64,000 nt of DNA, taken from positions 1,674,001 through 1,738,000 of the forward strand of contig OZ017748.1 of the NCBI GenBank assembly GCA_963969365.1, in the 5' to 3' direction. How positions within the stretch are numbered: the stretch's first letter is position 1; every line of letters begins with the position of its first letter. Shown here in pieces: positions 1 through 64,000 of this stretch. The position numbers were made by a program, and so were the translations under genes. Origin of the DNA: Asterochloris sp. CNOR1. Its lineage: Eukaryota > Chlorophyta > Trebouxiophyceae > Trebouxiales > Trebouxiaceae. The notes beneath the pieces are model-generated. The model did not search any database and was not told where the DNA came from. It worked only from the letters and a program-made list of their open reading frames with translations.

Positions 1-3000
1 GCACACTCATCCCGTACAGCCATGATGCTGCTGTAGCATTTGGGGGTGGGCATCTCTGCTCATAGTCCTAACTCAGTCATGGAGAAGCCGTGCAGGTTGG
101 GCAACCAGTTGGCGCTGGTACAGGTGGCCTGTCTGCAGACCTCGGGGCACCGTTTGGCAGTTGTGGTGCTGGGCTGCAAGCTGCGTGACTCATGCACGAC
201 ATTCTGCCCTGCAGGTTGGCAACCGGATGGCGCTGGTGCAGGCAGCCCTGGCTGCAGATGCCAGTGCCCATGCCAACATGGGGGCCATCAGGGGCCTAGC
301 AAAGCTGCTGGACATCACAGGCCAGGACCAGGAGCTCTGCTTCCATGCAGCCCACGCTGCCCTACAGCATGGTGATGGCCCCTCAGCGCGCAGGCTGTGC
401 CTGCCACTTGTCGAGCGAAACTACAGGCCAGCCTGGTGCCTGGCAGCGGCCGTTGCCCGGGAGACGGGGGACTCGGCCTCCGACATGCGCCTGCAGCAGA
501 GGCTGCTGCACTTTGCGCTACTGCACTGCCCCAAGTCCCAGGTGAGGCCTGCACAGTTACTTGCCGCTGCTTAGATTTGCCACTGTGAACGTTGCAGTGG
601 TGCACTGCCCTTGTCTGTAGATGAGCCCTGCTATGCACTGCCTCACGTCGCAGGCAAGGCCTGCAGCAGCAGTTGCTCAGCTTTGCAGTGTTGTACTGCT
701 CCAAGCTGATTAGGCCTCCGCAGAGGCTGCTGCACTTTGCTGTGCTGCACTGCAACAACTGACAGTGAGGCCTGCACCTTCTGCCTTGGCATTGCTGCAC
801 TGCCCTGCAGGTGAGAGAGACCGCAAGGCACTGCCTGATGACTGCCATAACTGGAGCTGAGGCTGTGCACGGCACGCGGATGAGTCACAGTTGGCTGGTT
901 GGGGCTCTGCATGTGGGACTGCTGACAGAAGCAGAGGTCTCCAGAACACATGTTATATTATGTCATCAACTTCACTGCTGCAGATCTGTGGCCTGCTCAG
1001 CCACCTGGAGGCCCTGCACAGCCACACTGGGGGACGTAGCCTGCACCACAGCATGGAGGATCTAGAGCAGCTTCTGGGGGAGACCATCCATTCAGCCAGC
1101 AGCCCAGGTGAGCACATGCCATTCTGACAAGGAGCTACATTGGTGTGACCAGTCTCAAACGTCAGCTGAAGCTAAGCAAGCAAAATTGGTCAACAGCATA
1201 GTCTGTATGTTGATTGCTGAGGTGCACGAATGTGACAGGCTGTGCTGGTGACCAGCCTCTGATTACACACTTCAGCGGTACACCTTCCTGACAGTTGCCG
1301 AGCTGATGTCTCAGGCCTGACGCTTGCCCCATACAGGTGCTGCATATGCAGATAGCTGCCAGGAAGTGAGCTTGGCAGGTCCTTACCTCACAGCTGTGGC
1401 CTGCTGCCTGCACCTGCTGCGCTCTGGGGGCTGCGCGGCTCTGGAGGCCAGCTTAGCGCGCTGGCAGCACAATCCGGCAGGACACCGATGCGCACTGCTG
1501 GCGGGAGTCACCGCAGGGGCCCTGCAAGTGCGTGCTTGGCAAGTGGTGCATAAGCGCAGCTGCTGCTGGTTCGAGTGCCCAGAAGCTGCTATTTGAGGCC
1601 GGCCAGACATGGCTGTCATTCAGTACAATTCATATTGTGTGCGCTTCAGCTGCTGGGTGGCACCGTCTGGGGGGCAGGAGCATAACAGGCACTGAATTGC
1701 TGCAAGCGTGGTCCTTTCCTGTGGCAACATTGTGCATGGCTTGAGGTCAGTTGCCCAACGGTGTGTTTGCCCACTTGCGTTCTGTGGGACAGCGAGACCT
1801 CAAATGACCCACAGCGTTGCATGATCAACCCACACAGGTGTCTTCATGAGGTCCCTGGGCACAGCTCTGCAGTCAGCCTCCAGCAGGGAGCAGAGCACCT
1901 GAAACCACTTTTTGTCCCCCAGAATCATTAGGATGGTGCCCTGTGCAGGTGTTGCTGGGGCACAGCTCTGCCAGCAGTCTCCAGCAGGGGACAGAGGTCA
2001 TCCAGCAGCTCCTGGCCCAGCCCCCACAGGCTCTGGCGCAGCGTTGCCTGCAGCTGAAGCCTGAGGCACTGAACTCTGAGCAGCGCGCAGGGCAGCAAGC
2101 CTGCCGACAGCTGCTGGAGCTTGTGCGCAGTTCTGCAAATGTGCAGGTGGTGCAGGCTGTGCTGCCAGGGGTTGACCTGGCGCAGTTCACAGGTGAGGAG
2201 GCCAAGACTCTGTCAGGCACAAGCAGGCTGGATCAGAGTTGCTGCACAATCAGCAGATTCCCAGCTATTGGTGGGGGCAACAGTGCAACTGTTTGCACCC
2301 TGTATGCCAAGTATCATGGGTGGGAAGGTGTACTGCTGAACTTGACCCAGAGTGCTTGGGTGTAGCAAGCAGCGGGAGGCTTATCAGCCAGAGGAAGTGG
2401 TGTGCAGGTCATACAACACGCTGCAGGCAATTGAGAAGTCTGCTTGTGTGCGTGAAACTGCAGGGCAGAGTCAATGATGTCATCAATCTGCTTTGAGACC
2501 TGAGGTGAAGGGGCAATGGCCCCAGCCTTTCTGATCATGTGGCTGCTGCGTCAGCTCAGCATTCCATATGTCTGCTGCAGGCACAGGCGATGCTGCCGTC
2601 AGCTACAGGCTGCAAGCGCTGCTGAAACGCTGCCAAAGTGTGGCAGGCAAGCAGGGCCCAGGTCCTGAGGCAGAGGCCTTCCTGCAGCAGACCTTGCAGC
2701 TGGCAGAGCAGTACGGGGTGCCTACCTGGGAGCTGCTAACTGCATTTGTAACAGCTATGCTGGTACAGTGGCAGCACGAGGCAGCAGCAGTCAATGCTCT
2801 GGTCAAACGGCAGCTGCTGGTGCTAGTGCAGTGTCCCCGGCAGCTGCTGCGGTGCCTGCTGGGGGAGGTCTGGCCGGAGCTGCAGGGGCAGCGGGCTGCG
2901 CACGTGGGTACGGTGCTGCAGCTGGTGCAGGCGGCCCTGGCGCAGGCAGGGAAGCAAGCCCAGTCAGGTGTGGGGGCCTTGATCACTTGGGCGGTGGTGC

Positions 3001-6000
3001 CTGCTGGGGCAGTTGCTGCAGGTGACACTGGCGCAGGCAGGGAGGCAGGTGGAGTACGGTGCAACTTGTGGAGAGTGTCGGCAGTATGCCTGCTGTGCAG
3101 CAGCTGGTACAGGCATAGGCAGGCGGCAGGCCGAGACAGGTGGAGGGGGTGACAAGAATTTGAGCGGCAAGTGTGATGTGCGTACTGGGCAGGGTCCGGT
3201 ACCTGCAGCCACACGCAAGCTGCAGCCCCCCGTCCACCCTCCCAAGCAGGTAGCTTGTGTGACTGGCTGGCATGAGCCAACAAGTGCGTGATATTGTGCG
3301 TGTGTACCAAGAGCTGAACAGCGGGCAAGGTCAAGCAAGCGTGCTGCTGCAGGTGTTGGCGGCGATGCCACAGGTTCCGAGGCCGGGCAACAATCTGAAG
3401 GCGCTCATGCAGGCCTCCACAGCCCCAGCCTCAGCAGGCAAGCGGCGCTGGCTGCAGAGGCCTTGATGGGCTCTGGCCAGGCTGCACTGCCAGTGCTGTC
3501 TGACCTGATTGCCTTCTGCCGCGGGTGCGCAGACGCAGCCCCTGGCCTGGACGTCAAGCCCTTCCTGGAGGCTGTGCTTCTGCTTCACCAGGGCGCAGTG
3601 CTGCCACACATGCCAGACGTAGCAGCTGCTGAGGCAGCGACAGGTGCCAAGGCTGGACCCTTGCAGAACGGCAGCCCTGCCAGCGACAGCAGCACGCTGG
3701 ACATGGGCTGGGCTGGCCAGGAGCAGCAGGTGCTGCATGCAGCTGCCCCAAGCTGCAACAGCCGACACCAGGGCAATGGCACTGCTGCCCAAGAGCAGCA
3801 GCAGGGTGCTCGCTTGCACTCGCTGATGCAAATGGCTGCTAAGGAGCTGGCGGTTCATGCTGGCCTGGACAATGCTGATCAGCTGAGCAGTCTCCTGGAA
3901 GCCCTGCCCACAGGGCCTGCTGAGATGATGCTGCACGCCAGCAAGACTAGCACAGCAGCTTGGGACAATCTGCTCAGCAGGAGCGCTGTCCACGCCGCAG
4001 CAGTGTGCAGCGCAGCAGCTGAGGCTGCGGATTGGCCACAGGTCAGCACCTGCCTGCAGGATGCCTGGCATCCAGATGCAGCATGACATATCTTGCGCCT
4101 GCTGTGCGCCCCTTAGTCGATAGAAACCTGATCTTCTTGCAGCACAGCAGCTGCTCAGATGCACATGCAGAACTTGCATTCTGTCACCTGGATCTATGGT
4201 GCAAGCGCATTGGCGCCAGGTTGGCTTGCTTAGGCTGCCTGAAAGTGGGCAACAAAGTCACGATGCTCCCTGCAGCATGAGTTTGAGGAGCAGTGGAATG
4301 TAGCACGCAGGCTGCTGCTTCAGCTGAAGCCCAAGCATGCAGCCGCCACCCTGGCACACCTCCTGCTCAAAGGCCAGCATCCACTCCAACAACAAGTGGA
4401 GGTGAGGCAACAGCCCTTGCATGAGTAGCAGCAGTCTCTGGAAAGTCCACCCCTGCACAGGTAGTCGCACCCTGCGCAGCAGATACCAGTCAGCCATACA
4501 CATCTGATCAGGTGGCAGCGCCCTCTGCAGCAGGGCTAGTGGTCCATCACGCTGCATGATGGCGTCACTCACTGCAGCATGCACTGGTGTGCAGTTATCA
4601 GGCTTAATGAGCTGCCAAGCCGTGCACAGTCTTGTCAATACCTGGCCGCTGTGTCTGATGACAACACAGTTCTGCGCAGAACTGTGCATATGGCAGCACT
4701 CAGTACGCTACCCTCACTGCTTCTCACAACTAGCTGCTCGTGGTCTCCCTGCAGGCGCAGGCAGAGACAGACTCCTCAGGCTGGGGCAGAGGTGGGGCAG
4801 GTGTGGAGGATGACGGCGGCCTGCCCCCTGCTCCCCTGCTGTCATGGAGTGTCCAGCTGCGCATTGCCCGGGACGGCAGCAAGGTGCTGCACAAGCTTGG
4901 GGCCGGGCTGGGCGAAGGTGGCGTTGACGCGGCAGACAGGGACCAGGACATTCAAGCGCACAAGGTGGGGGGAAAGGGGATCTTGAGGGGGTCCTCAAAG
5001 CCTAATTTTGGCAGCTGGAGACTGGTGCTGGGCAAGGCTGAGGCTGACAGGGGCAGGGAGGGCCAGACGCTGCAGGCGGGTTGCGGCTGGTGCATGACGT
5101 ACTTCGACGTAAGTGGATGAATCTGACTGCATGTGCTGGATGCTATGCTGAGCAAGGCTGGCCATGAGGCTGACGCAATTAGGGCTGACGGGGGATAACA
5201 AGCCAGAAGCTGCACCGGGTGCGAGTGCTTTTTATGGAACTCCCTGCTGTGAGTCCCAGGTCTGGGGTCATTGCGCGCCGCTTAGCTTTGCGGTTGCCCT
5301 GAGGCTCTGCAGTGGCTGCTGCAGCGCTCTTGCAAGGGCGCAGCGGTGCTGTTGTGGGCAAAAGGGCAAAAGCTGGCGGTACAACTGCCACCTGCCCTGC
5401 AGGGTGTACAGGCCCAGATGAAGTTGCTGGCTCGGGCTCTGAAGCTTGCGCAGGAGTGTGCTGCAGCTTGCGAGCTGGGAGATGAGCAGCAGCAGGCGCT
5501 GCAAACCTGGATCGAAGGCTTGAGGTTCCCTTTGGGCAGCCAGCAGAGGGCTGGCTTTGCTGATGTGCTGCAAACCCTGGCAGCCGGCGCCTGCCCAGCA
5601 GCCGTCCTGCTGCATGCTGCCATCTCTGCTGACGAGCTGCTGTGTGAAGGCAGCAGCAGCAGCCCTAAGGCACCTTCTCAGGCTGCTGCCGCTGTCGGGC
5701 AAGCGCTGACGTCGGCACTTGGCTCTGTCCTCGAACAGCTAGCACACCCAGACACCGCTAGGTCCCCAAACCACTCCCAGGCTCAATGGAATAGCCTGCT
5801 TGCAGCGAGGAACATACTGTCCTCTTTGTCCAATTCAGAAGACCAGCACCCAAGTCACCTCAGCCCACCGTTATTTACACTTCTGGACCAGTATGTGGCA
5901 GAGTGGCGAGACAGCGCCTGGACCCAGCTGCAGCAGCACGCAGCAGCAGCATCGGATAGTGGCGCTCTGCATCCCAGCACCCTGCAACTGCTGGAGCTGA

Positions 6001-8644: not shown

Positions 8645-10505
8645 AAAGGCTGGAATGCAGCCTCCATGCCAATATCCAGCGGTTTGTTCAATAGGGTCTT
8701 GAGGTGGAGCATGCAGGCAAAAGGGCTTTCGACCTGTTCAGCAGGTGTGTTCATACCTCTTGCAGTGCAAGCGCTACAGAGCATATAGTACATGCAGATG
8801 GGTTGTGTACATGTCTGAGTCGAGAGGTGAGGTGGGTGAATGGGTGTGCCCATGGCCAACGGCCTTCAGTGCCACAGCTGGCATGGAGCTCACCAGGGGC
8901 CCCCTGCATCACTTCCCATTACTGATGCGGCCTCCCGGCAGCGTCTGTTGCTGAAAGGCAGAGCATGCCCCCAACCTCTGGGTCCCACCACAGCTTGGCC
9001 CTGGAGTGCTGATGAGGCTGCTGCTAGATCTCAGAGGGGCCTCAGATGAATCCAAGGCCCTGGCAGTTAGAGAGTGGCGCCTTGGCACCACAGCAATGCG
9101 CTTGGACCGGGCTCTCAGGTGGGTGTGGTGTCAGGCAGCAGCATCGAGAGTCTGTGTCAGATGTGTAACAGCACAGTGCTTGTGGGGCACCATGCTGCAG
9201 CTCATATTGTGCAGTCGTCATCTGAATGTTCTCATCTCTGGTGTCCCTGCTAACCCCCTGCAGCTGCTCAGGAAGAGACAAGGCAAAGGGAGCATCGGCT
9301 GATGGGGTGCGGCAGGCCTTGGTTCTTTGATGTGCACATGCTAGCAAAAGTTGAAACCAAGTCCGTTCATTTGGTAGGCTCAAGTAGCTGTGACATCCTC
9401 TCTCCCCGTGGCTGGTCAACTGTCGAGAAAACAGCACTTCAACCCTCTCAAAACACAATTTTGTGCCAAAAGTCTTGTCAGGCCTGGCACCAGGCTGAGC
9501 GGAAAGCACACCTTCCTTATCCGGCGCTCACATTGTAGGCTTGACGGAGAAGAGAGTATCAGGAGCTGAGGCAACAAGCCCAAACTCATGGGCTGCTTGG
9601 ATGACCTGCCCAGCAGGTGACATGGCCTGCGAGCTTGCCTCACTGTTTTCTTGTGACCTCTCCGAGGCAATGTACCCTACATCACCTGTTGAACTTCCTG
9701 GAACTCCAGCCCCAAGAGAGGATGGGGTTAGGTGCTGGTGCCCTCAACAAGAATGCTGCGTGCTTCAGGCAATGAGCTTGTCGGCTGCCATACTTGCTTT
9801 GCAGTCAGCAGTGCCAGGCTGGAGCTCAGTCAATTGCAGCCCAAGACTCCAACGGTTTTGAGTGAGCCTCACATGCAGGGGCACTCTCATTCAAGGATCC
9901 AGCAGTGGCTCAACAGGTCTCATCTCAGCTGTGTGCCCATATGGCCAGAACTTTCGCTTGCATTGCAGGCATACAGCTGCAGCCGTCGGCAACCTCGCTG
10001 TACCAGTGGCTGCCGTATTTATGATGTGACAAATGAGCTCCTATGCTGCCATGTGCAGCAGCAACCTTGGAGCCCATTAGTCTTCAGTGAGCCTCTGCGC
10101 TGCCCTCACCATCAAACCCGACTCATCAGTGGCAGGGGAGTGCTCAACAAGCAGTCTGTGCTGCCATGCAGGGCACTCTTGTCTCAGCAGTGGTTGGGCA
10201 CATCCCCACCAGGCTCCAGTAGATGACAGTTGTTTGACCCGGGAGTGCATCTGTGCTTGCATCTGCAAGGACAAACTTGTCTCAGCAATGGCTGGGCAGG
10301 TGCCCATCTAGCCATTTGCACACCACGTGGCAGCTCAGAGACCCAAGACGGCTTCCAGTGCAAGCAATGAGCCTGTGTGGTGTCAGGTGCAGGGGTACAC
10401 TTATCTCAGCGTGGCATCCCATGCCCCAGACCGCCTGCACCTTAGGCAGTGAGCCTGTATGTTGCCGAATGCAGGGGCAACCTTGTGTCAGCAGTGGCAG
10501 GGCAG
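8645..10505 (+). other. Repeat-rich stretch: intergenic DNA and unresolved 5' exons of the SAP-domain gene
   Basis: No complete gene can be read here. A possible exon at about 9015-9118 encodes 'SDESKALAVREWRLGT' and ends AG/gtgggt; a possible continuation starts at 9264. From about 9774 to 10510 a module recurs roughly every 80-110 bp: GAGCCT, a TGCTGCCATGCAGG-like acceptor, GGCACTCTTGTCTCAGCAGT, GGCTGGGCAGG and a CATCAGGCC-like end. Copies are seen near 9774, 9858, 10083, 10158, 10250, 10367 and 10447. The last copy runs into the coding exon that starts at 10506, so the array may be decayed copies of that acceptor region. The true start of the downstream gene is probably inside this stretch. 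Confidence 0.5.
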
Positions 10506-11443
10506 GTGCTCATCAGGCCGCCCGCTCACTATGTGGCGGCCCACGACACCAGCCCCCCAGAGGACCAGGTGGTTCGCACAGACCCCGTCAGCATCCTGAG
10601 GCGCTGCCTGCTTCAGAAGACTAAACGGGAACAGGACAAGAAGAAACAGGAGCGGAGCAAGGCTGCTGCAGAGCGGAGCAAGGAAAAGGGCAAGGCTGCA
10701 GCCAAGCCCACAGCAGACAAGGGGAAGAGGTGGGTGCAGGGCAGGGGCTGGCGCTTGAGAGTAAGGCCTTGATCAGCACCACTTCTGGACTGCTACTGGG
10801 GCTGGGCAACGGCATGGATCTCCTGCATAGCTCCTCAAGGGTTGGGCAGAAGCATTGGCAGATCAGGGCGAAAAGCAGGTGCACAGCAGAGGCTTTTCAA
10901 TGTTTGTCAAATTATGGCTGTGACTCACAACAGGCGGTCTCTGCTGGGCTTCTGCGCAGCAGCTGAGGTCACGCTGTTATAGCAGCCGCGCCTCCACTGA
11001 TTTGTAATCCTCTGGCAGAACGCCATTGCACCTGTGCCCCCTGCAGGCCAGCTGTGTTATCTGATGAGCCTGGCCCCAGCAATAAACGGCCGCGTCTCGA
11101 TTCAGGGCCATCAGCTTCAGGTGATTTGCCAAGTCTCAATGCCTGCTGGCAGCAGCATAGCTGAACCTCTGCTGGCGGCTGTTGCAGTGCCTGGCCCGGC
11201 ATTCTCATGCTTCTGTGCGCTGCAGAGTCACAGTCATACAGCAAAGGAGAGCTCTCTTCTAAGACGTGCAAAGCACTTCAGGTAACGCCCTGTGCAATTT
11301 TGCTAGCCATTGTTATGCAGACAAAAGAGCAGCAGTTGTATGACATTGCCTGATCTGCACTGCAGGAGATCTTGAAAGGCCTTGGTCTGAAAGCTACAGG
11401 CAAGAAGGAGGAGCTTGTAAACCGAATACTTGAATCACAGTAG
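10506..11443 (+). CDS. Nuclear protein with C-terminal SAP domain (3' exons)
   Basis: Four exons join in phase: 10506-10729, 11047-11120, 11226-11281 and 11366-11443 (TAG). The first encodes a Lys/Glu-rich segment ('KTKREQDKKKQERSKAAAER'). The second has an NLS-like 'NKRPRLD'. The last two encode a SAP motif split by an intron: 'SYSKGELSSKTCKALQEIL', then 'KGLGLKATGKKEELVNRI'. SAP motifs bind DNA and occur in nuclear proteins of repair, transcription and chromatin. The NLS-plus-SAP ending resembles the end of Ku70, but no Ku core or von Willebrand-like domain is visible upstream, so I do not call it Ku. The 5' part is unresolved (see 8645-10505). Confidence is high for the SAP end and low for identity. 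Confidence 0.62.
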
Positions 11444-11683: not shown

Positions 11684-14391
11684 ATGCCAGTGCTGCGTGT
11701 GGCGTTCTGCCACCCAGACCTCGGACTGGGCGGTAAGGCTGTCTTAGCTTGCCCAAAATAAGTCTTGCAATGACCAAGCGGAGTGGGCTGCTGCAGGTGC
11801 TGAGCGTCTAGTAGTGGACGCAGCAGTAGAGCTGGCAGATCATGGACACCTGGTGCACACCAGCAAGCTGGCCAGATCTACTTGCACTGGCAGTTGGTGT
11901 GAGCTGCACCTCTTTGCCTGCTGCAGGTCGATGTCTATACTGCTCATTATGATCCCAAACGCTGCTTCAATGAGACTGTTGACGGCCCGTTCACAGTGCT
12001 GGTGGCTGGCAACTGGTTCCCACGCCATGTGCTGGGCGCCCTGCATGCTTTGTGCGCCTACATTCGCTGCCTCCTGGCTGCCTGCTACATCGTCTGGCGA
12101 TCCTACCGGTGAGCCTGCGCTGAGACTGGCAGCAGCTGGCGGTGACACCTGCCACTCAGAACCAGACGTGCAGCAGCCCTGCCGGCAACGAGAGGCCCCT
12201 ATAATGACTCTCCCTGCATTGCCTGTACTGTGCTGGGTCTCTGCAATGGCTGGGGCCAGACTGGCTGGAGGGGCCTTGTACATTTGGAGTGTACCTGTAG
12301 CATACCACTCAAGCGCAAATCGGGCCACATTGCAGTGTGAGCCCTGAGAGGGTCTGAGCAGGAAGACACCTGGCTGCAGGCTGCAGACGCAGTATGATGT
12401 GATCATCGTGGATCAGGTGTCCGTTGTGCTCCCAGTGCTGCGATGGACGACCCAAGCAAAGGTGGAGACAGCAATGAGCTGCACTGTCACGTGGATGTTG
12501 CTGGACACCTACCCTGCACATGCCTGGGGTGACTCTGGCTTTGCTTGATGGCTTGTGCATCCCAGACCAGGGCAAGATGGACCTGAAGCTTGCTCTGCAG
12601 TCTGGACATGTTTGTGAGGCATGGTGGTGCTGCAGCTTGCTCTGCAGTGTACACCTTTGGCTCATCACCAAAGTTATGTGCACCCTGGCTGCAGGTGCTG
12701 TTTTACTGCCACTTCCCTGACCTCTTGCTGGTCCAGCGCAGGTCCTTTCTGAGAGCCATCTACCGGTGGCCCCTGAATGCTGCAGAAGAGTTGACCACAG
12801 GGCAGGCTGACAAACTGCTGGTGAACAGCCAGTTCACCCAAGGCAGGCTTCTGAAACACTGCTGCTCATTCACTCTAAGCCGGGTGTCCCTTGCGCTGTG
12901 TCTAACCGCCTCTTCAAGACCCCTGCACGGTAGTGCAGTGTCGTCACTGCATCTGCACACCCCACACCGGCAGTGACCCTGCACTGTTCCGTCAACCAGC
13001 TCACCCATGTGCAGGCGTCTTTGCAAAAACTTTCACCAGCCTGGCCAAGAGGGGAATCGTCCCTGATGTCCTGTACCCTGCTGTGCCAGTGCCATCCAAT
13101 CAGGAGCTCCAGACAGCCAGCGACTCTTGGCCCAGCATGGTCGATGAAGGCCTGTGCAGCTTCCTGCAGGAGCACACGGTGTTTCTGTCCATCAATCGCT
13201 TTGAGCGCAAGAAGGCGAGCTGCTGCATGCAGCTGATGCCCTCAGACTGTCATGAAGGAAAGGCAGTGCCCTGAGTACTGCGACAGGCAAGACAGCAACC
13301 TGAAGCTTAGCAGGACTTAGTCATTGGTAATGTCATAAGATTTGAAGGCCAAGCAAGTGTCACATTCTGCATCTTCCTGCAGGACCTGGCTATTGGTGCC
13401 TTCCCTGTGCTGCTGAAGCACCTTAGCTCTGCAGAAGGCTGTTCAAATCCAACTCCACTTTTGTCACAAGCTGCGTGCTGCTGCAGGACCTGGCGCTGGC
13501 TGTCCTCGCCTTCAGCGCGCTTCAGAAGCGCCTTGGGCTGAGGAGCACAGCTGCGGCAATGACTCGCCTGGTCCTCGCTGGTGGGTATGACACCAGGCTG
13601 GCAGAGAATCGGGAGTACTTCCAAGAGCTCAAGCAGCTAGTGCAGCAGCTAGGGCTGGAGCAACAGGTGAGGCTGGGAGCTGCGCAGTGGGTGCAGCCTG
13701 CTTGGGAGTGCTATTTGTGGGCATCAGCCTGCTGAACAGCTACCAGGACAGCCATGAGCACCTTCATGATGTGAGATTGCATCTCTGCTGCTCAGGGGCA
13801 AGGCACCCGACCTGCTGACCGCTGTGTGCTCATCTGTCCGCTGTGCTGGCAGGTGTGGCTGCTGCGCTCCTTCAGCGATCAGCAGCGGACAGCCCTGCTG
13901 GCAGCATGCCATGCTGTGGTCTATACGCCCCAACGGGAGCATTTTGGCATTGTCCCTCTTGAGGCCATGGCCTCCAGCCGTCCTGTGATTGCATGCAACA
14001 GTGGCGGTCCCATGGAGAGCGTGCTGCACGGCAAGACGGGCTTCCTGTGTGAGCCCTCGCCAGAACAGTTTGCTGCTGCCATGGCCACACTCCTGGTGAG
14101 GGTCTGCCCTGCAGCTGGTGCTTGCCTGATGCTGGTGCCTGTCTCAAGCTGCTTGCTGATCTGGCAAATCTTTGCAGACCACTCTGCGTGGGAAAGACCT
14201 GCTGCACAGCGATTGCTTGCTACATAGTGCTGTCTCGAAGTGCAGTCTCTCCTGTGCAGGAGGACAAGGCAGTGAAGGACATGGGCAATGCCGCCAGAAG
14301 TCATGTGATGAAGACTTTCTCCAGAACAGCCTTTGGCAACAAATTGCACACCATTGTCAGTGATCTGTGCAGACACAGAGCGAGCTATTGA
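11684..14391 (+). CDS. ALG2: ALG2 alpha-1,3/1,6-mannosyltransferase (GT4 family)
   Basis: ALG2 adds the second and third mannose to the dolichol-linked N-glycan precursor on the cytosolic face of the ER. Nine exons join in phase: 11684-11732, 11797-11852, 11927-12108, 12380-12461, 12695-12842, 13015-13214, 13487-13666, 13853-14095 and 14260-14391. They give 423 residues (human is about 416). Landmarks are an N-terminal '[17 protein letters not shown]' nucleotide-sugar fold, '[13 protein letters not shown]', '[10 protein letters not shown]', 'SINRFERKK' and the GT4 donor-site motif '[11 protein letters not shown]' followed by 'NSGGPMES'. Introns 5 and 6 begin with GC (12843 and 13215), because no in-frame GT fits. 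The start ATG gives '[14 protein letters not shown]', the usual beginning. SAR1 and NBAS, also secretory, lie nearby, but no co-regulation is implied. Confidence 0.95.
13376..13530 (+). repeat. Exon echo before ALG2 exon 7
   Basis: The acceptor and exon start at 13480-13530 (GCTGCAGGACCTGGCGCTGG, CTGTCCTCGCCTTC, CTTCAGAAGCGCC) are echoed at 13376-13425 (CCTGCAGGACCTGGCTATTG, GTGCCTTCCCTG, CTGCTGAAGCACC). Spacing is about 105 bp. The echo lies inside the GC-AG intron 6. Confidence 0.7.
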
Positions 14392-18689: not shown

Positions 18690-21600
18690 ATGGCACGGAT
18701 CAAGCGGCTGGATCCCAATGTGGTGAACCTCATTGCGGCAGGGGAGGTCCTCGTGCGCCCAGCGAACGCAGCCAAGGAGCTGATTGAGAACGCCATTGAT
18801 GCAGGTGAGGGCTGCATGCGTCCTGGCTGGCTTGCGCTTTCAGAGCTCACATGGCAGCATCAGCGTGTCATCCACGCCGCAGCTACACTGTCACCTGTGA
18901 CCTGCAGGAGGCAAGCACATCACGGTGACAGTCAAGGATGGCGGCATGAGGCTGCTGCAGGTGCAGGATGATGGGCATGGAGTGCAGGTTAGCCCCCAGC
19001 TTGTCTGCCAACAGGCACCTTGGGCCTCTTTGGCTCTGCTTGTCTCCCAGGGGTTTCAGTAAGAGGGTGCAGTGATTGTGACGGTGCACAGCACGCCATC
19101 AGAGCCAGCACAAAGGCTGCCATCTGCAAGAGTTGGGGGCCTCAAGCATCACCACTTTGGGTGGTGCTGCCCAATGTCGGGGGTGCTGAGAACCTTCCTC
19201 TGATCTGTGAGCGCCATTCAGCCCCCTGCAGCTCTGACCACAACTTGTTGGCCTGCAGCTCAAAGTCTCAGCCTGCAGTTGCAGCCAAGCGTTGTTCAGA
19301 CTCACAGCTGTTGTTCCACAGGTGGAGGATCTGCCCCTGCTCTGTGAGCGTCATGCCACCTCCAAGCTGCAGCAGTTTGATGACTTGGCCAGCATTGCGA
19401 CCCTGGGCTTTCGAGGCGAGGCTCTAGCCTCCATGTCATTCTCTGCACACCTCTCCGTGACTACCATGGTCAGGAATGCCGCACATGGGCACCAGGTGTC
19501 CTACAGGTACCTCTGCACAGGGAGCTGGCCCTGCCGTACTGCCGTCATGCCATGTTGCAGCCCCTTGGGAACTTCTGATATGCAAGCCGCCAGGCTAGAT
19601 AACTGCTTCTCGGCTCTTTTTTGCCCTGTGGAGGCCAGCTCGTGTGGGCTTCCCCTGCTGAGTCAGGGATGCCTCCCTCAGCAACCACAGCAAGGACTTC
19701 ACCTTACATGCAGGGATGGCGTGATGGATGCAGCGGGGCCCCAGCCCTGTGCAGCCCTGCCTGGCACCACCATCACTGTGCAGGACCTGTTCTTCAACAT
19801 GCCCATCCGCCGCAAGGTGAGCATGGGGGTGGGGTCGGGGCCTGCTGAGGAATCGTGCGCCTGCCCCTGTCTTTACCTCGCTCCCAGGCATGTGCCAAGT
19901 GCTTCCAGCACTAGAAGCGCAATGCTTGCAGGCCCTAAGGCTGATGCTAGAGTCCAGGTGCACGTCTTGATTGGCAGGTACTTGATCGCCAAGCAAGCCC
20001 GCAAGAGCAGCCTGATCATAGGAGCTGTCCTGTCGAGATGCTTGTCTGCGGCGGGCAGCTCAGAGCTGGGGTAGCTCTGCATGCCAAGTGCAGAAGATGA
20101 CCCCAGCCCTTCATGACAGGCCCCTGTAGTCTTCACTCAACCTTATCAATCCCTGTACAGGCCATGAAGAGAGGTGGCCTAGACTGCCACGACTCATCAG
20201 CAGGCCCCGCTATGCCATTTCACACATGCTGGCCCCTGTGCAGGCCATGAAGAGTGCAGGGGAGGAGTACTCGCGCATCATGGACATTGTTGGGCGCTAT
20301 GCCATACTGCACCCAGGGGTGGCCTTCACCTGCAAGCGCCAGGTGAGTGGGTCCTGGGTGTTTTCACAGGTGTCTTGGGGTCCTGGGCCTGCTGCCTTGG
20401 GGACGTCCAAATGTCCACCGAGGGGTGTGGCCCTCACCTGCAAACAGGGAGACACCCTCTGCGCGTGGCCGCTGCCTGTGCTGGGGGCCTGCATGCCTGC
20501 CTGTGGCTGGTGCTCTAGATGTCTGCACCCCTCTGCCGGGGGCTGGCCCTCACCTGCAAGCGGCAGATGTCTGGTCTGCATGGCCGCTGAGTTGAGCACC
20601 ACCTGCACTAAATTGGCTGCGTGGACTGCCTTCCTCCAATTTGGTGCAATCAGCTCACTGCTGGGGGGCTGTGCTGCTGCAGGGGGAGGCCCGTGCAGAC
20701 TTGCACACTCTGGCCAGCGCTGGCAGGGTGGACAACATCAGGTGGCGCCCCTCTCGTGCATTCTGCATGAGCCTGACGGGCCGGAAAGTGACCTGCTAGT
20801 GACTGCAACAGGTCTCCTGCACTGCTTTGCATCCTGTCAGCCCATCCAAAAGGACACCATTTGCAGGTGGCAATGAAACCCAGTCCTGCTGCCAACTGGA
20901 CCCACTGTTGAACCCTGGCTTGTTGGCCGTCTGGCTGGTGAGGTAGCAGTACACTCTTGCAGGTTGCAGACACCAGCTGTACATGCTGCAATGCTCTGTG
21001 CAGCAGCTTATACATGGACTCTGCCTGCAGGGCAATTCATGGGGACAACACAGCCAAGTCCCTCCTGCAGTTTCAGAGCGAGGCTGGGCCGGACCCCACA
21101 GACCCGAGTGCCACACAGCAGCCCGCCGAGCTGGTTTGCAGAGCTGAGGTGGGCCACGACACCTCCTCGACAGCTGCGCCCCACACATGTCAGTCACTGT
21201 GCAACAAACCTGAGCAGCCAAGTCCCCTTGGCCTACGCTGTGCAGGGTCAGAAGGCAAGCATTTCCCCACCTGGGAACTTCTGTCCATCAGGGATTTGCA
21301 TCAGACAAGAATTCAGCGGCGTTTGCTGTGCAGATTGCCTAGCTTACTGGGCTGAAAGTGTTCTGCACGGTAGGAGCATGCCTTACGCATCAGCTGCAAT
21401 AAATTTCCGTGCCCTTACGCTAGGCCGGCCTCATGCTGCAGGGCTTCGCCTCAGACAGCAGCTTCAATGGAAGGAAGAGCAGCTTCCTGTTCTTCCTCAA
21501 CCAGCGAGCCGTGGACAGCTCCAGCCTCAGGCGTGCAATCGAGGCAGTGTACTCATCTGTCTTGCCCAAATCAGCCAAGCACTTTGTGGTGCTGGTGAGC

Positions 21601-24600
21601 TTTTGCCTCTGCAAGTATGCCTGACATTAAACAATGTGCTATTTGCTGAAAGGTCGTTTGAGTGGGTTGGGCTTGGTGCATACTGCATTTGACCCTTGCC
21701 ACGCCTGCAGCCAGGGCACCGTCATTAGTGGTTGACAGGGCGCACAGAGGTGACGAGCCCTTGGCGCTGTGTGGCGGCATGCAGCTATCACAGTGGCAGC
21801 ACCAGTTGGCAAGGTCTGAGAGCAGATTGCAGGTGCAGATGGCGCGGGTGTCAGCCCCAGACATGGACTTCAAAGCGTTGTGTGCAGCACCAGGTCACCT
21901 CACAGCTGTCCCACTGGCAGCCACACCCGGCACAGGTCTAACAGCACCACTGCAGTGCAGATGGTGCGGGTGCCAGGCCCTCACGTGGATGTGAATGTGC
22001 ACCCCACCAAGCGCGAGGTCAGCTTCCTGTTCGAGGACAGGCTGGTGGAGGTGGTCTGCGCTGCCCTGCAGCAGGCGCTCACCAACACAACCTCCAGGTA
22101 GGGAGAGTCCATGTGGTCAACAGGCCCAACCTGCATGCCAGAGCCTCTGGCATAGCCCCCTGTCAGCAGCAGCTTGGCAAAGCTTTGCGAGTCTCACACA
22201 TGCCTGCTGTGAAGACGAGCGCAGATCTGACAGTCTTGGAATCCGTCAGGAATTCCATTGGTGCTGCTTTGCAGTGCAGGCCATGCTCAGGCCCCTGGGC
22301 AATGTGGCTGCCCTGCGGCCAGAAGTACAGATCACATCACAGTGCCACCTCCTGTCACACTCTCAAACAGTGCTCTACTGGTGCCCTGCAGCCAGATGTA
22401 CACCCAGGCGCCAACCAGCGCTGCGCCCTTACGGCCTCCTTCCAGCAAGGCAGCAGCCGACTCTGTCGCGCCCAAGCAGACTGTGGCGCCGCGCAGCCTG
22501 GTCCGGACAGACAGGTGAGGCTCCCCCGAATGGCTGCATCCAGCGACGTGGCTTGTGCCCGCAACTCTGGTCACGCGCCGCCGTTTCACAGGCCCCATCT
22601 GGCCATGCCCTGCCTGCAGAGAGCAGTAGCAGAGCCTGCTCCAGTGCGCTGCCCAGCCCAGCATGCAGGGGCCCCGGCTGCAGCATGTCACGCAATGCTC
22701 TCAGGCTGCACCTGGGAAGCGGCATCTGTGCCAGCTCAAAGCCTGGCCGTCAGGTATGCAGATGCTGGCCCTGATGCACTTGTGGACCAGGCTGAGGGTA
22801 CAGCATGTCTAGCTCAGCCGACACAAGACAATCGCTGAGCATGCACTCGTTTTACCACCGCTGGCGCCTTACATGTAAGTCCCTGGTCTGCTGAAGAGGC
22901 TTCTGCTGAGCAGCGCAGCTGCAAGGCTAATGCTAAAATGCTCAGATGTTCAGCCGTACTGCTGAGCTGATGCCTTTGCAGCATAACAGCAGTTGTCAAG
23001 CTGCACCGCCTTTGTGTAAGCCAACTTCGTACCCAGGCTTGACATGATGATGCTGCAGCAGTCCGGCATTATTCTAGCTCTGACACCAATATGCTGCTGC
23101 AGCCGAGCCCGCACCTTGGACGCCCTGTGGCGGTCCTCGCAGGCACACGGCAGCCCCCAGCCCATGGCCATCGACCCTGAAGATGCAGCAGCCTCGGCAG
23201 CTGCTGCAGCGCCTGCAGTCCGCAGGAAACGCTCCAGCCGGGGCCTGTCTACGGAGGATGCCGCTGTGGCTGACCTGCTGGGCATGGGGCAGGCCAGTCT
23301 GCAGGTGAGACTGACTCCTTGGGCTCAATACTGCTGCCAGGCAGCCCAGCAGTAGGCTCAGGCACAAAAGTTCTGGGCAGCACAGCTTGAGCCCAAGCTC
23401 CGCGGAGACTCAGTTTAACAGTCCCTCAAGTCCTCACCTGCGCCTGTGAGCTCCTCTCCAGCGAACCAGGAGCTCTTGCCTGCAGATGCAGGCAGCTTCT
23501 GAGGCAAAGGTCCTTGCAGGCTGCCCATGCAGACCCTACTGTATGCTATGGGCATATCCTCGACAAGATGGTATGAGTCATCAGGGCAAACTGTCTGGCC
23601 CAGGGGAGCCCCGGTCTGCCAATGGCTCTCCCTGTCAGCAACAAGGCCTTGAACACACACTGCTGATGAAGCAGGCAACGCCTGTCCTGCACTGCCATGC
23701 CCAGTCACAGCAGCCCTGCTTACTCAGCTCTGCCTCCAGGAAGTCAACATGCATCTTCAGCTGCTTGTCAGCAAACCCCTGCAGCCAGAATGGCAGCATG
23801 CCCTTGCTCATCATATCAGGCTAGTGCGCTGCATGCTCTTAAGCGCGACCAACATCAAGTGAGGAACCCGAGCTGCTTCTGCACTTGCCCTTACAAGCTG
23901 CAGAGCACCAATCACTCCAGGATCAGGTGCTGAGGCCAGAATGCAGCAGCCCTGCCACTAAAGACGACCGCTCACAGAGGAGCCAGCAGCCCTGCACCTT
24001 CTTGATCTGCCCTGCCACCCAGTAAACAAGTGAACTGACACCCCAGGGAGCTGCATCGCCTGCACAGGTCCAGCGCTGTTGCTGATGGGGCCTGTCTGTT
24101 CTCGATTGTTGCTTTAACAGACTAGCTGGATATGAGGGCGGGTCAGCCTGTAGGTGGGGAACACAGGCAGAGGCTGCACTCTAGCGGAGTGCGAGATGGC
24201 TGGCTTTTGGACAGGCCTGCCTGTAGGTGGCAATTGTAGATTGATGTGTAGTCCTGGGCAAGGCAGGGCTGGTAGCTCTTCTTACTTTCTGGCTGGCAGC
24301 TGTGGGAGGCATCACCTACCTGCTCTGTGCCTCTCTGCACCGCGGGAGAGTGGCAGTCACTGCTGCTGGAGGGCATGCACACTGCACATGACAACGCTCT
24401 GGATTCTAACTGCTCCAACCTTGCCCTTTGGCCAAACCTGCATAAGCAGAGGGCGTCAGCACAGCATCGCGTCAACTGCCCTGGCGGTGTTCTGCTCCAG
24501 CAAAAGGGTTTCATTGGCGCCATCCCAAGTTGCCATCCACTGCCCTGCAGGCGCAGTTGCCCCCGCCAAAGGCCTCTGCACGACACCACGTCAACCCTGA

Positions 24601-38345: not shown

Positions 38346-41300
38346 TCAACTAGCCTCGCTGGTGGTACAGGCATCCAGAAAGTGATGACTAGTCTTCTTG
38401 GGCCTGTCAAGTGCAGCCTCCCTGATGTGCTCTGCCTGCTGGCGCATCTGGGCAAGTACATCATACACACGCCATTGGAACGCTGGCTGACTGCTGCAGC
38501 AGGCCTGCAGGAAGGCCAGCGTGACACGCGATAGGTAAGGATAGGTCCCAGACTCGCTCTGCTGAACAAAGAGGGCAGCCACAGAAGCTGTCTTCCAATC
38601 ATCAAAAATCTGCAGGCAGCATCCTGTTGTGAGTACTAGCATTCTGAATAGACAGTAGCAGGAAGTCATGCTCAGGATGGCTGCATGCCGTGCAAGGGGC
38701 TGCAGCAGAGACATAGCACTGGCCTGAAAGTTCGACAGGCTTGCACAACTCGCCTGCAGCGCTACATCGAGGCGGCTATGCCGACAGCATGCCTCAATGG
38801 CTTCCTCCCACATCCGTCTATATGAGAGTGTCAGCTTGGCCAAGGCCAACTTGTCTGTCTGGAGATGCTGGTAAAACCTGCAGGTCGGCAAGGAACCAGC
38901 TCCTGCCAAAAGGTGCTGAACAGACTGTTTCCTGGCAGGAGAACCCTCAGCTCTATGCAGCACAAACCTTTCCCCACTGCAGCTGGACAGAACAGCCTGA
39001 ACCCAAGCAGAATGTGACTGCAGCTTTTGTCTCAGCTGACATGGCCTTACCTCCAACACTGCTGCACATTCCCAGCCGCTGCACAGGTGTGTACCAGGTA
39101 AGCCACTGCCTCTGAAGTGGGCTGCATAGACCGTTTGGCGAGGCCAGCGCCCTGCTGAGGAGACGCAGCCAGGCCGCAGGCATGCGCAGCCTCGCCAGGC
39201 TCTTGGCAGCTCGCTGTGCCCGGGGCAATGCCTGTCTGCCCACGGGCAGGAGCCCTCCCATCGCCCAGCTCTTGGTGGGCTGTTCTTGGCACCATGTCTG
39301 AGCCTGTCTGCTCAGGGGCGAGGGGTTCCCCAGCACTTGCAGTCGCGCCTCTTGCCAGCAGCACCTGAGAGCTGCCACCTAAGGGGGAGGGTGAAACTGA
39401 CCCTGCTGCCAGGTCATGAGGAGCCACAGGCTGGATCTTGCCTGGGCTGGCTCTCGCAGCCTGGGCATGCAGCAGGTCAGGGCCAAGGGCGGCCCTTGTG
39501 CCCATCATGTCTTCATAGATCTGTGCTGCATCCTGGAGCTGGCCGGCCTTGCAGAGGCTCACAATGAGCGCTGAGCCAGCCTGCTTAGAGCTGCGGCTGC
39601 CCTGCTGCCTCAGCTCCCTGCATGCCAGTGCAGAAATTGACCCACAATGTCACAGTGAGACTTGAGGTGGGGGCTGCCCTGCTGATCACTTACATGTTAG
39701 CAACTGAGCTGTCAAACGTAGGTGTGTTCAGCAAGCTGGGCATCTGCAGCAGCCCAGTGCAGCCTGAAGCCCCTGCACTGTGTGAAAACAGCAGCCATGA
39801 CAGCTGAGGCCATCCGGACACATTCAAGCGGCTGCTGCTCACCAACACAGCTCCCTGCTCTGGCAGCATTACAGCTTGTACATCCTGGCTGCATGCACGC
39901 AGCAGCCCCTCACCAGTACAGCTCAAGCGCCCTGGCGCTCATGCTGCTCCTGGCACAGGCTCTGATCAGTGTCAGGAAGGTGGCGCTCTCAGCGCGCATG
40001 CCCATCGTCTGCATGAGGCTGAGGACGCGCAGTGCGCGCCCGGGAGAGCTGCGTGCCAGGGCCCTCACCAGCGAGTTGAGGGTGTGCTGCTGCATGCTGC
40101 GGTGCTGGCGAGCCAGGGACTTCACAACCTGCAGGGCATCCTCCAGCCTGCACCGCAGCAAGTCCACCGCAGTTTTACGCATGGCAGAATCTGAGACTGG
40201 CTGCTGTCAGGCTCTTCCTGACAGCTAGTCAGCGATAGGGAAGGCTGGTCAGCTCCTGCCATTCCAACAAGCAAGTTGAGGGTGTGCTGCAGCACGCTGC
40301 AGTGCTGACGCGCAAGATATTTGACCATCTGTAGCGCTTCCTCCAGCCTGCCAACGTGAGACATGGCACACCCCGAGTGAATGCTCTCAAGGAGTGCAGA
40401 TCAGCGATGCAGTTCAGCGCTAGCACTGTATGGTGGGGGAGAGCTGTGTTTCAACTGCAGTAGCCAAGCAAAAGCTTGCCACACCTGTCAGCAGCTGTGC
40501 AGATTTGCGGCACAGCATCAGGGAACACAAGGATGAGCACCACCTCTGCCCTAAAGGAAGGCGTGCCTCACCTATTGGCAGCCGTGCAGGTCTGCAGCAG
40601 GATGTCATGACACTCATCGCTGGGAACCACGCCTGTGTGGCAGGCGCGCTTATACAGCGCGACGGCAGTGTCGGCGTCTGCAGTCTTCAGGCAGGCCACC
40701 ATCAGGCAGCCATAGGTGGCTGCAGTGGGCTGAATGTTGGCAGCCTGCATCTCCTCAAACACCTGCACAAAGGAACAGGATGTACTGAACCAAGGACGTA
40801 TCGTGCAAGGAATGATGTGGGCCATGTGCCATCAGGTGGCGGCTGCAGTAGGCTCCCTTCTCCTGCACAATGGGGCAGCAGAAAGGGCATCAGAGGCACC
40901 AGGGGGGGCCATTCCTGGTGCTGCACTGGCAAGCTCCTCAACTGGTGTGCCAGGCTGCAATGCAGCAGTTGCAGGTAAGCTGCACCTGCAGCACATCACA
41001 TCATCCCCTGCAAGAGAGTACTGACACACTACTCAGGGCGAGCACTGCAGTGCAGGAACGGCCTCGGTACCAGGCGATAGCCAAAGGCCTGGTGCAGGCA
41101 GATGCCTCACACCCAATGTATGTGCTGCGCTTCACAGAGAGCTACCCTAAGGGGAATCCAGCTGCACCTTTGCAGCTGACCCCCTCACCTGAAAGGCCTC
41201 CTTATGGCTCTCTGGAGTGGCCTTGTTGTTGCAGGCGTCCATCAGCGCGGTGTAGGCCTGCACGGTGGGCTCCAGCTGCAGGCTGTGCATGGTGGCAAAC

Positions 41301-58600: not shown

Positions 58601-61600
58601 GGCATGCCCAGCGGCAACAGCTTCAGGTCAGCCATCCAAAGCAACAGCCAAGGATGGCCTGCAGGGCATTAAGCATCAGTACAGGCTGCACAATGCCAGC
58701 CCCAATGCTGCCATCTGAGATCAAAGCTGTCCTCATCCTAATAGACCTCTACAGGGTGAGGTTGCTTAGCGGGGTGTGCCCACTCTAGAAGAGAGTGGTG
58801 CATCCTCACGAATTGATACGCACGTTGATAATGACCAGGGTTTTCCAGTTTGAGCTTGTGAAGGGGTCATCTGACTGGCATAGACTGCAAAGACTGGTCT
58901 GAAGCTTGTGCAGCATTCAGCGCTGACGTCAAGGCACCCACCTCCCTGCTCACCAGGCAGCACATGTAAACGCACACCTCACAGCACCACTGTGTGGAAA
59001 TTCACACACGCTCACCAGGCTGTGCTTGGCCAGCTCCTTCACATTCCCCAAGATCATCTTTTCCATCAGGGACTTCTCAACCAGAGCCTCGGAGGCTGCG
59101 GCAGGCAGGCCACACATGGTAGGCTGCCTGCATGCCTGCATGTTGCATTGCTGCGATGTCACCAGCAGCTAGTGCCATGCATCGGCAAGCAACAAAGGGC
59201 CTTGCTGAAGAGCCAGCATGATAGGGTCCACCGGTCAGACACTAGCATGGGCAGTCTCAATTCAAACAAACAGTTCTGCAGTCATGGGCAACTCTGGCAA
59301 TGCTGGCAGGGGGCAGCCACAGCAGGTGCTAAGACGGTGCTTGAGAATGAAGGTAGTGCTGCAGCGCCACCCACCCTGACAAAGAAGAAGGTGCTCTTCA
59401 GCCAATCAACGCCCAATGACACATCTCGAATGGTGCGCAGTGCAATCTCAGCATTGAAGTACTCCTGGAAGCACGTGCTCAGTGCGCTCTCCATTTGCTC
59501 AGCCCCATGCAGCAGGTTCTGGTAGCGAGCAACCATCTGCAGCACAGCACGAGAGCAGTGCCCAGACGCCACAATCCCAGCACAATTCTCTGAGAGGCAT
59601 GTGCTCGGCGCACTGTTCACATGTGCAGCCCCATGCAACAGGTGCTGCTATCAATCAAACATCTGCAGCGTGGCATGAGGTGGGTTCTCAGAGATCCACA
59701 CAGAAGAAGTTTTACTGTGCTACCATTTGCAGCAGAGCATGGATCAGGGAGCACCAGTGGCAGGGCTGTCAGGTGGTGGAGTCTGGGGCTGTCACAGCAG
59801 GTGCAACAGCAGCATCACTACGACATAGCCATGCCAGGCACTACTGAGCTACATATGAAGCTGTGTAGGGGTTGCTCCTGTCAGACCTCCTGCTTGTTTT
59901 GATCTGGTGCCAGCGCTGCTGCGCAAGCCACCCTTGGACAGCATACCTGCCGCTAGGTGCATGCTGTCAACCACCCCATCAGTGTCAACATGGGGCCTTC
60001 TCGCCCTGCCTGCCATGTAAAAGCATGTGACTGCTTGCGCAGTCCCCTGCCTGACGCATGCAGCGCAGGGTGGCCACCAAATTTCCCTACCTGCCGCTGC
60101 GTCATTATGACAGCCACCCCCTCGGTGTCAAACTGGGGCCGGCCTGCCCTGCCCGCCATCTGGAGGCACATGCTGCGATCATACTCCTCATAACCTGAGC
60201 CGTCGCCGCTCGCGCCGCCACAGTAGCGGCGGGTGCCCTTGATGATGACCAGGTGGGCTGGCAGGTTGACTCCCATGGCCAAAGTGGAAGTGGTGCAAAG
60301 CACCTGCAGCAGTGGACGCAGGGCAAGCCAATTGGGCTGCCAGCAGTTCGTCACACTGGGCCGGTCCCACACGGACATGTGTGAATTGGGAGCTGGCAGT
60401 CAGCAGACCATCTGCAAGCCCGCTGAGACTAGTTCTGTGTGGATGCAAGACTCTTGCCGGACTCTGAGGTGCACTTCAGCTCCCCAGCCCCCGGCATTCT
60501 ACTATTGATGCCAGCAAGCCATGTCTTGTTTACACATGCATCATTACCAGGACATCTTTGTTCAGGAACAGCTTTTCCACTCTCTCACGCTCCTGCACGT
60601 CCAGAGCAGCGTGGTGAAATCCAATGCCGGCTGCCAAAGCCTGCTGCAGCTGTCGACTGGTCGTCAGCATGGCAGCCTGCGCCAGGCGCTGCTGCTGGGC
60701 AGCACTCGTGATGTATCTGCACTTCTGCTTGGTACACTGGTTGACTAGATGCAGGGCAACAGCTTCTGCGCCTTTTCTGGAGCTGCAGCCAGACAATAGA
60801 CAATCTGTCAGTAGCGAGCCCAGAGCAGCATCATCTGTCCAATGACCCCAGCTATGAGGTCAGCTGCAGGCCCTCCTGACAACCCCGAGCAAAGTGCTGC
60901 ACAATGCACAGCAAGAGTATTTCAGGAAATGCACTGCAGCACAGACCTGCAGAAGATGAGTGTAGGCTTGCCAGCACTGAAGTCTTGTACAATCGCCGGC
61001 AGATAGTTGTTGAGGTACCTGCAGACAGTTGAAGCTGCTGGGTTGAAGCTGCTTAGCCATGTTAGCACTGAAACAGCTGAAGTTCAACACATTCTTCAAC
61101 GGACATGCCGTTCCTTGATGGGAAGCCAGCGTGGTGACATGCAGCTGATGAGCAACAAACACAGTCAAGCATTGGAAGTGCAGCGCACTTCTCAAAGAGG
61201 AAGTCGTTCTTGGCAGGGCTGTAGCCCTTCACAATGGTACGCAGGCGCACAGGCCTCATCTCCTCCCCAAAGACGAGAATGCCAGCCTCAGGGACCTCAA
61301 GCCAGGCAGCAATGTCCCGCACGTTTGGGATGGTGGCTGAGACTGCCACAAAACGCACATGCGCCACTGCCGTCTGCAGGCAGGCATCAGGGGTCAGCAG
61401 GATTGCATGTTCAGTAAGGTTAAGGGACAAAAGCCTGCCACAAGATACAGATCAATACTGGTGTGTCAAGGCAGGCATGCAGGGTGCAGCCTTGAGCAGC
61501 CAGAGCAGGGCACCATTTGTGTGCTCACTTTAGCCAGGGTCTTTTGGCATCGAGCTTCTGCTCACACAGAGTGCACATCAAGACCAGAGCACATGACCTC

Positions 61601-63049: not shown

Positions 63050-63311
63050 GATTTGACACGGCAATCTGGCCTACAGCTGAAGCTGGTCAATCAGATCGCT
63101 GCTGGCTGCTACAGCCGACATGTCGCACTTCCCTGCACTGGACCTGAGGCATCCTGTTCGATGCATCAGATCTCCCATCAAGGTCAAGCATCTGAGTGGG
63201 AACCTGGAACCTAGGCTCCTTAGCGTGCCAAATCCTTGCTCTAAAGCTCCTGAAGATTTTGGCTGCTCTATGTAGCTCATATCACTTGTTATCTGTTCAG
63301 CACTGATCAGT

Positions 63312-63810: not shown

Positions 63811-64000
63811 GGCCGTGTACACCAGTTTGCTGGATGAACACTGCCAGTGCTTGCTCACGCTGGGTGAGTCGGCATTGCTACGAGGACAGCTCACCCGTCG
63901 CCTGCCAGCGACCTCACTATGGCCATGCTGTGAGCTTAATTTTACTGAGTGACTGATCAGTGCTGGCTCATCAGTCGGCTTGTCGGCACCTCTGGGGCTG

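What the first reader, a model, noticed from the sequence alone, without database searches (positions are those of the whole stretch)
1..64000. Pervasive 'exon echoes': introns filled with decayed direct copies of neighbouring exon edges
In NBAS, ALG2, MLH1, biotin carboxylase, the PPR gene and HFM1, and probably before the first SAP gene, introns contain direct, diverged copies of 30-90 bp that cross the adjacent splice site. Spacing is usually 80-145 bp. About twenty cases were found by eye, on both strands and on both sides of exons. Examples are 88/207, 493/718, 13376/13480, 19182/19322, 20155/20238, 21833/21955, 25816/25929/25991, 30288/30424, 59466/59592 and 59944/60089. Tandem duplication of segments holding a splice site is a known route to new or longer introns; here it looks like a continuing genome-wide habit that would leave copies of different ages. 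It may also explain the many intact-looking TGCAG sites inside introns.
Basis: partly seen in the sequence, partly recalled or inferred. Interest (0 to 1): 0.82.

Follow-up and report, generated by a model that had tools for sequence, protein, structure and literature searches.

The report
Introns lengthened by decayed local duplications
In this green alga many introns contain worn-out nearby copies of the exon next to them, apparently left by short tandem duplications that crossed an exon edge and were then spliced out; the kind of event is known, but here it is widespread and mostly old.

Summary
Direct matches 80-120 bp apart are about 75 times commoner than at 600-1500 bp in 324 kb (window plus 13 regions on seven other contigs); inverted matches show no such excess. 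With self-trained gene models, 108 of 686 introns match themselves or their exon edges, against 2 of 4,026 size-matched comparisons with other introns.

Best reading: short tandem duplications that cross a splice site and leave with the intron. Exon-internal pairs keep frame (22 of 25), edge pairs do not (27 of 95). Pairs of 85% identity or more show no preference for exon edges; those at 70-80% do.

The process does not look steady: 7 of 193 genic pairs are young and full-length, against 40-56% in constant-rate simulations. Intronic TGCAG is not in excess. One result fits poorly: exon and intron parts of crossing pairs are equally diverged.

Duplication across an intron-exon boundary is documented singly (potato; Drosophila for exonic duplication). 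What seems new is the density and the age skew. No RNA-seq, relative or other alga was available.

The parts
31836..32429 (-). Youngest echo found in the window: 295-bp tandem duplication in the biotin carboxylase gene; unit = about 208 bp of intron end, the CTGCAG acceptor and the first 87 bp of the predicted 111-bp exon 31812-31922; 94% identical, 4 bp (CAGC) shared at the junction
   Evidence: (period 295, 93% matches), alignment, sequence and exon table
59443..59692 (-).
59944..60168 (-). Donor-side echo in the same gene: intron copy 59944-60025 of the exon end 60088-60168 including CAG/GTA, spacing 143, 76%
489..777 (+).
87..258 (+). Acceptor-side echo before the predicted exon at 215 (copies 87-139 and 206-258, spacing 118); the gene model calls part of the echo an exon (96-123)
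13358..13534 (+).
19188..19363 (+). Acceptor-side echo in MLH1 (19188-19226 / 19325-19363).
20151..20254 (+). Short copy pair in MLH1, 20151-20171 / 20234-20254, spacing 83
21782..21989 (+). Acceptor-side echo in MLH1: 21782-21867 copies 21903-21989, spacing 122, 76%
25805..26027 (+). Acceptor-side echo in MLH1: 25805-25853 copies 25979-26027, spacing 174, 86%
30259..30433 (-). Acceptor-side echo in biotin carboxylase: 30394-30433 (intron) copies 30259-30298, spacing 135
40067..40351 (-).
28530..28680 (-). Intron-only tandem pair, exactly adjacent (28530-28605 / 28606-28680), spacing 75, 82%
10264..10543 (+). Overlapping echoes (10264/10470 spacing 206; 10326/10410 spacing 82) at the predicted exon start 10475

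Best explanation
Short tandem duplications (mostly about 80-200 bp) have arisen anywhere in this genome. Those wholly inside an exon survive only if they keep the reading frame; those inside an intron, or crossing one splice site, are tolerated because the extra copy is spliced out with the intron. After an acceptor-crossing duplication the downstream acceptor is used, after a donor-crossing one the upstream donor, so the spare exon edge ends up in the intron and decays. Shown: local, direct-only copies, in all regions sampled, frame-free when they cross an edge, frame-kept inside exons. Inferred: the splicing choice, the birth mechanism (probably repair of nearby nicks, or slippage), and that most events are old, so that exon-anchored pairs, which stay recognisable longer, dominate.
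For: Spacing spectrum: 54.8 matches (18 or more) per 100 diagonals per 100 kb at 80-120 bp, 22.4 at 40-80, 33.2 at 120-160, about 0.7 at 600-1500; inverted 0-1.5 in every bin. Each of the ten 20-kb regions tallied one by one, at places I chose arbitrarily, shows it (4-21 close matches against 0-4 far). Intron control 108/686 against 2/4,026. Spacing mod 3: exon-internal pairs 22/25 multiples of 3 (p 2e-8), edge pairs 27/95. Mismatches in edge pairs fall more on third codon positions (28.7%) than on first and second (23.2, 21.6%; p 3e-5): the exon copy is constrained. Two of the 7 young full-length genic pairs are plain two-copy tandem units: 31836-32429 and L019 2403-2630. Simulations with all events old (0.3-0.4 substitutions per site per lineage, four settings) give edge/intron-only ratios of 2.1-19.8, median identity 0.74-0.78 and length/spacing 0.50-0.78; observed 3.1, 0.77, 0.42; constant-rate simulations give 1.2, 0.84-0.86, 0.93-0.96. 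In rice, tandem duplications are 70% of events below about 125 bp and 5% by 200 bp (PMC7971508, section 7 read).
Against: In 75 pairs with enough columns of both kinds, exon-intron columns (76.2%) are no more alike than intron-intron columns (76.1%, p 0.89); every simulated setting with such pairs expects the exon part to be 3.7 to 7.9 points better, so exon freezing alone does not fit well. Aligned length relative to spacing (median 0.42) is below the simulations whose ratio fits best (0.60-0.63). High-identity pairs are mostly short and not adjacent. Gene models are my own, trained on the same DNA that holds the echoes and without RNA, and at least one acceptor is wrong (MLH1). Gap lengths did not separate coding from non-coding copies: not multiples of 3 in 53 of 62 edge gaps but also in 16 of 18 exon-internal gaps.
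Confidence: 0.83

Rival explanations
1. By-product of CTGCAG-rich composition and strong splice motifs: exon edges and introns look alike by chance.
For: Acceptor consensus is very strong (T, G, C of TGCAG at 93, 94 and 97%) and TpG/CpA are over-represented.
Against: Comparison with other introns of like length and the same splice motifs gives 2 of 4,026 against 108 of 686; the excess falls with distance.
Confidence: 0.01
2. A duplication mechanism tied to splice sites or transcripts (for example R-loop or reverse-splicing linked copying) that favours exon edges at birth.
For: Edge-crossing pairs exceed random placement (XI+IX 77 against 47.7, intron-only 22 against 39.6; with strict alignments 75 and 31, for which placement was not rerun) and exceed constant-rate simulations (3.1 against 1.2); freezing of the exon does not show as a divergence gap.
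Against: Among pairs of 85% identity or more, edge to intron-only is 11 to 10 against 59 to 9 at 70-80% (p 0.002); donor and acceptor sides both occur (40 and 55); exon-only and unannotated DNA have pairs too (25 and 19 of 214).
Confidence: 0.12
3. Templated insertion during polymerase-theta end joining from nearby sequence.
For: Copies are local and often shorter than their spacing (median 0.42).
Against: That route is expected to give inverted copies too (recalled); inverted matches show no excess comparable to the direct one at any distance. Some young cases are adjacent copies.
Confidence: 0.04
4. The intron copies are alternative or mutually exclusive exons still in use.
For: 61 of 95 edge copies hold no stop or frameshift over the short aligned stretch.
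Against: Copies are mostly partial; spacing ignores frame (27/95); 34 of 95 have a stop or frameshift, with stops in 16 of 1,138 triplets, though frameshifts inferred from gaps are weak evidence (see the gap result). In biotin carboxylase the Pfam profile covers the repeated segment once.
Confidence: 0.05

Closest known systems
[quoted passage not shown]
   Same: A tandem duplication crosses an intron-exon boundary and the splice signals come from the parent
   Different: There one recent event made a new intron; here mostly old events lie within existing introns, in 106 of 686 predicted introns
Tandem-duplication introns in Drosophila (PMC2891723, abstract and one section read)
   Same: Exonic duplication followed by intronisation of one copy
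   Different: 7 introns in a curated set, for which the authors found no support from conserved surrounding sequence; here the similarity is still visible in 95 edge pairs
Patch-repair tandem duplications in rice (PMC7971508, passages and one section read)
   Same: Direct adjacent copies, mostly under about 200 bp, as the commonest insertions
   Different: Seen as recent differences between varieties, not as accumulated intron content
Small tandem duplications by CST/Pol alpha-primase and NHEJ (PMC8355091, passages read)
   Same: A molecular route to direct tandem copies
   Different: Mammalian cells, breaks with overhangs of, for example, 50 bp; the route in this alga is untested
Introner elements (recalled; titles seen)
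   Same: Add introns on a large scale
   Different: Introners are families copied between genes; here copies resemble their own neighbour and not other introns of the sample

Membership tests
Tandem genomic duplication | Copies in direct orientation only | tested here: met
   Direct excess about 75-fold at 80-120 bp, inverted 0-1.5 per 100 units at every distance
Tandem genomic duplication | Copies adjacent, length equal to spacing | tested here: inconclusive
   True for 31836-32429, L019 2403-2630 and 28530/28606; median length/spacing over 214 pairs is 0.42; simulated tandem copies of 0.3-0.6 substitutions per site give 0.29-0.78
Tandem genomic duplication | Ancestral state with one copy in a relative | not testable with these tools
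   No relatives held for this genome; one search of viral contigs found no related gene
Intron gain by tandem duplication | A new intron whose two ends derive from the two copies | tested here: inconclusive
   26 of 108 matching introns have copies on both flanks, but gene models there may hold false mini-introns
Introner elements | Sequence shared between introns of different genes | tested here: not met
   2 of 4,026 comparisons between introns reach the score, against 108 of 686 self-comparisons; up to six partners per intron, sample of 324 kb only
Repeat-induced point mutation as cause of decay | Strong C-to-T bias (definition recalled) | tested here: not met
   Transition/transversion 0.98; C-to-T 26% at CpG but 8-12% in other contexts, as ordinary CpG decay

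The most novel reading that the evidence does not exclude
Much of the intron DNA of this alga was made by short tandem duplications, of the order of one per intron, mostly in one past episode of high fixation, so that its introns are a fossil record of local duplication rather than of mobile elements. Simulated detection at the better-fitting ages is 9-49% (four settings), so 126 detected intron-only or edge pairs would mean roughly 260-1,400 events for 686 introns (extrapolation).
Probability: 0.35. Interest if true: 0.75.

Novelty: new variant of a known kind. Interest (0 to 1): 0.55.

Why it matters
How introns grow other than by mobile elements is poorly documented. Here the exon copy is a built-in reference, so each event's unit, direction and decay can be read without an outgroup. 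If the density and age skew hold up, introns of this lineage grew largely by local duplication in a limited period, which comparison of related species could date. It also warns gene annotators: echoes can be called as exons (my own models did so at 31836-32429 and 87-258).

Tried and rejected
Composition and splice-motif explanation: rejected by cross-intron and distance controls. Inverted or templated copying: rejected. Repeat-induced mutation as the reason for the missing young pairs: no such spectrum. TGCAG decoys explained by echoes: no excess to explain. Constant-rate duplication: rejected under three indel rates; the duplication length law (35 bp plus an exponential of mean 100), the age range (0-0.7) and the exon rates in these simulations are my assumptions. 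A first simulation also tried a flat length law and neutral exons; all four settings gave edge/intron-only ratios of 0.7-1.4. Gap length mod 3 as a test for coding copies: uninformative. A weak lead, that edge-crossing copies avoid spacing under 80 bp (10 of 58 against 10 of 24 for intron-only, counted by eye; 12 of 95 against 8 of 31), was left. Viral contigs as a source of other eukaryote introns: 5 pattern matches, no relative. E. coli K-12, 50 kb, as a check of the method: no match of 18 or more at 20-160 bp, 5.0 and 2.0 per 100 diagonals per 100 kb at 160-200 and 200-300 bp. Literature: 10 searches; none of the listed rows, by title or start of abstract, describes genome-wide exon-edge copies in introns; several lists were capped and only open-licence papers are held.
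Full report
Setting. The window is contig C3:1674001-1738000 of a 56.4-Mb, 21-contig genome. Size, GC and intron density resemble the published Asterochloris glomerata (56 Mb, GC 56-62% in 98% of the genome, 9 introns per gene on average; passages of PMC6652019); the species is not established. I read 26 further 10-kb stretches, as 13 regions of 20 kb on seven other contigs, giving 324 kb with the window.

Is it there? Ungapped matches of the sequence with itself (match +1, mismatch -1) were counted by spacing. In 324 kb, at score 18 or more, the rate per 100 diagonals per 100 kb is 35.5 at 20-40 bp, 22.4 at 40-80, 54.8 at 80-120, 33.2 at 120-160, 21.6 at 160-200, 14.2 at 200-300, 6.5 at 300-400, 3.1 at 400-600 and 0.7 at 600-1500. 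Inverted matches give 0 to 1.5 throughout. A 50-kb piece of E. coli K-12 has none at 20-160 bp. The effect is in each of the ten regions tallied one by one (4 to 21 close matches per 20 kb against 0 to 4 at 1-2 kb); the other three were only pooled.

Gene models. The models are not perfect: the first window model shows 42 stops in its translation, which I ascribe to its being cut mid-frame at the window edge, and MLH1 exon 19373 should start at 19322.

Introns against themselves. Each intron with 60 bp of flank was compared with itself and with up to six other introns of nearest length from other genes. At 18 or more: 108 of 686 against 2 of 4,026; at 14 or more: 188 against 145 of 4,026. By length at 18 or more: 45-90 bp 12.6% of 111 (some of these may be false mini-introns), 90-130 11.8% of 93, 130-180 4.3% of 93, 180-240 6.1% of 98, 240-320 13.7% of 124, 320-450 24.5% of 106, 450 bp and over 49% of 61. 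So the copies are specific to their own neighbourhood, which rules out composition and shared intron families in this sample.

Kinds of pair. Clustering and gapped extension give 214 pairs. After strict realignment: exon-edge or exon against intron 95, both copies crossing an edge 36, intron-only 31, exon-only 25, unannotated 19, other 8. Exon-only pairs keep frame in 22 of 25; edge pairs in 27 of 95, chance level. This separation is the best evidence that edge copies leave the message by splicing while internal ones stay in the protein. Pairs with both copies crossing an edge are 12 of 36 in frame. Mismatches in edge pairs favour third codon positions (28.7% against 23.2 and 21.6%). Pairs cover 8.4% of intron, 6.8% of exon and 5.1% of unannotated bases.

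A young case. In biotin carboxylase a 295-bp unit is repeated at 31836-32429 with 94% identity. It takes about 208 bp of intron end, the acceptor and the first 87 bp of a 111-bp predicted exon, so the upstream copy has an acceptor and an exon start but not the exon's own end or donor. Mismatches: 1 of 87 in columns where both copies are called exon, 15 of 187 where both are called intron, 2 of 25 in mixed columns. The gene model uses both copies, which I take to be wrong.

Age. If duplications arose at a constant rate, young full-length pairs should be 40-56% of those detected; 7 of 193 genic pairs are. Edge to intron-only is 11:10 at 85% identity or more, and 59:9 at 70-80%. Simulations in which all events are old (0.3-0.4 substitutions per site per lineage) move the ratio, identity and length/spacing towards the observed values, while constant-rate ones do not. 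At a constant birth rate the number of pairs cannot rise with divergence, whatever the rate of loss, so a past episode or a decline is the simplest account (argument, not a test). Simulation settings are assumptions.

What does not fit. Exon-intron and intron-intron columns of the same pairs are equally alike (76.2 and 76.1%, 75 pairs) where simulations expect the exon part to be 3.7 to 7.9 points better. Intron ends near splice sites may be constrained, or local alignment may hide the gap; I cannot tell. Copies are also shorter than ideal tandem copies, and most high-identity pairs are short and apart. Repeated duplication and partial deletion, as perhaps at 489-777, may explain that.

Mechanism. 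Direct copies without inverted ones, mostly 80-200 bp apart, resemble tandem duplications in rice, which are 70% of events below about 125 bp and 5% by 200 bp and are ascribed to repair of adjacent nicks (PMC7971508). Fill-in and end joining at staggered breaks is one known route (passages of PMC8355091). In this alga the route is inferred.

Known or new. One potato intron arose from a tandem duplication across an intron-exon boundary (abstract of PMC4974935), and Drosophila has a few introns ascribed to duplication of exonic sequence (PMC2891723). So the kind of event is known. The density, the lengthening of existing introns, the frame contrast and the age skew were not described in the titles and abstract starts returned by my ten searches; full texts of most were not read.

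Noticed in passing
window 31836-32429 (-): A 295-bp tandem duplication in the biotin carboxylase gene makes my gene model read 29 residues (LADEAVCIG...SAALS) twice; other annotation pipelines may do the same.
   Followed up: yes
window 15440-18238 (-): The model fuses an NDUFB11-like segment (residues 1-71) with an Arf-family, probably Sar1, GTPase; two genes close together on one strand, or a true fusion.
   Followed up: no
whole sample (324 kb): CpG is strongly depleted (observed/expected 0.31 in introns, 0.45 in exons) with TpG/CpA in excess although GC is 57-61%, suggesting cytosine methylation; an exon CpG reads as a C-to-T change in 26% of echo columns.
   Followed up: partly
686 predicted introns: Acceptor consensus CTGCAG/G is very uniform (T 93%, G 94%, C 97%) and about 9% of predicted donors are GC.
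   Followed up: no
L019 2403-2630: Exactly adjacent 114-bp (38-codon) tandem duplication, 93% identical, almost wholly in a predicted exon.
   Followed up: no
L023 137 to 14800, counted in L023 and L024 joined: Six young tandem pairs (unit 49-108 bp) in stretches without predicted genes; 6 of the 13 young full-length pairs of the whole sample come from this one region.
   Followed up: no
L033 10173 to 16430, counted in L033 and L034 joined: A region with many echoes and several short predicted introns with matching flanks; candidate introns born by duplication, or a repeat protein.
   Followed up: no
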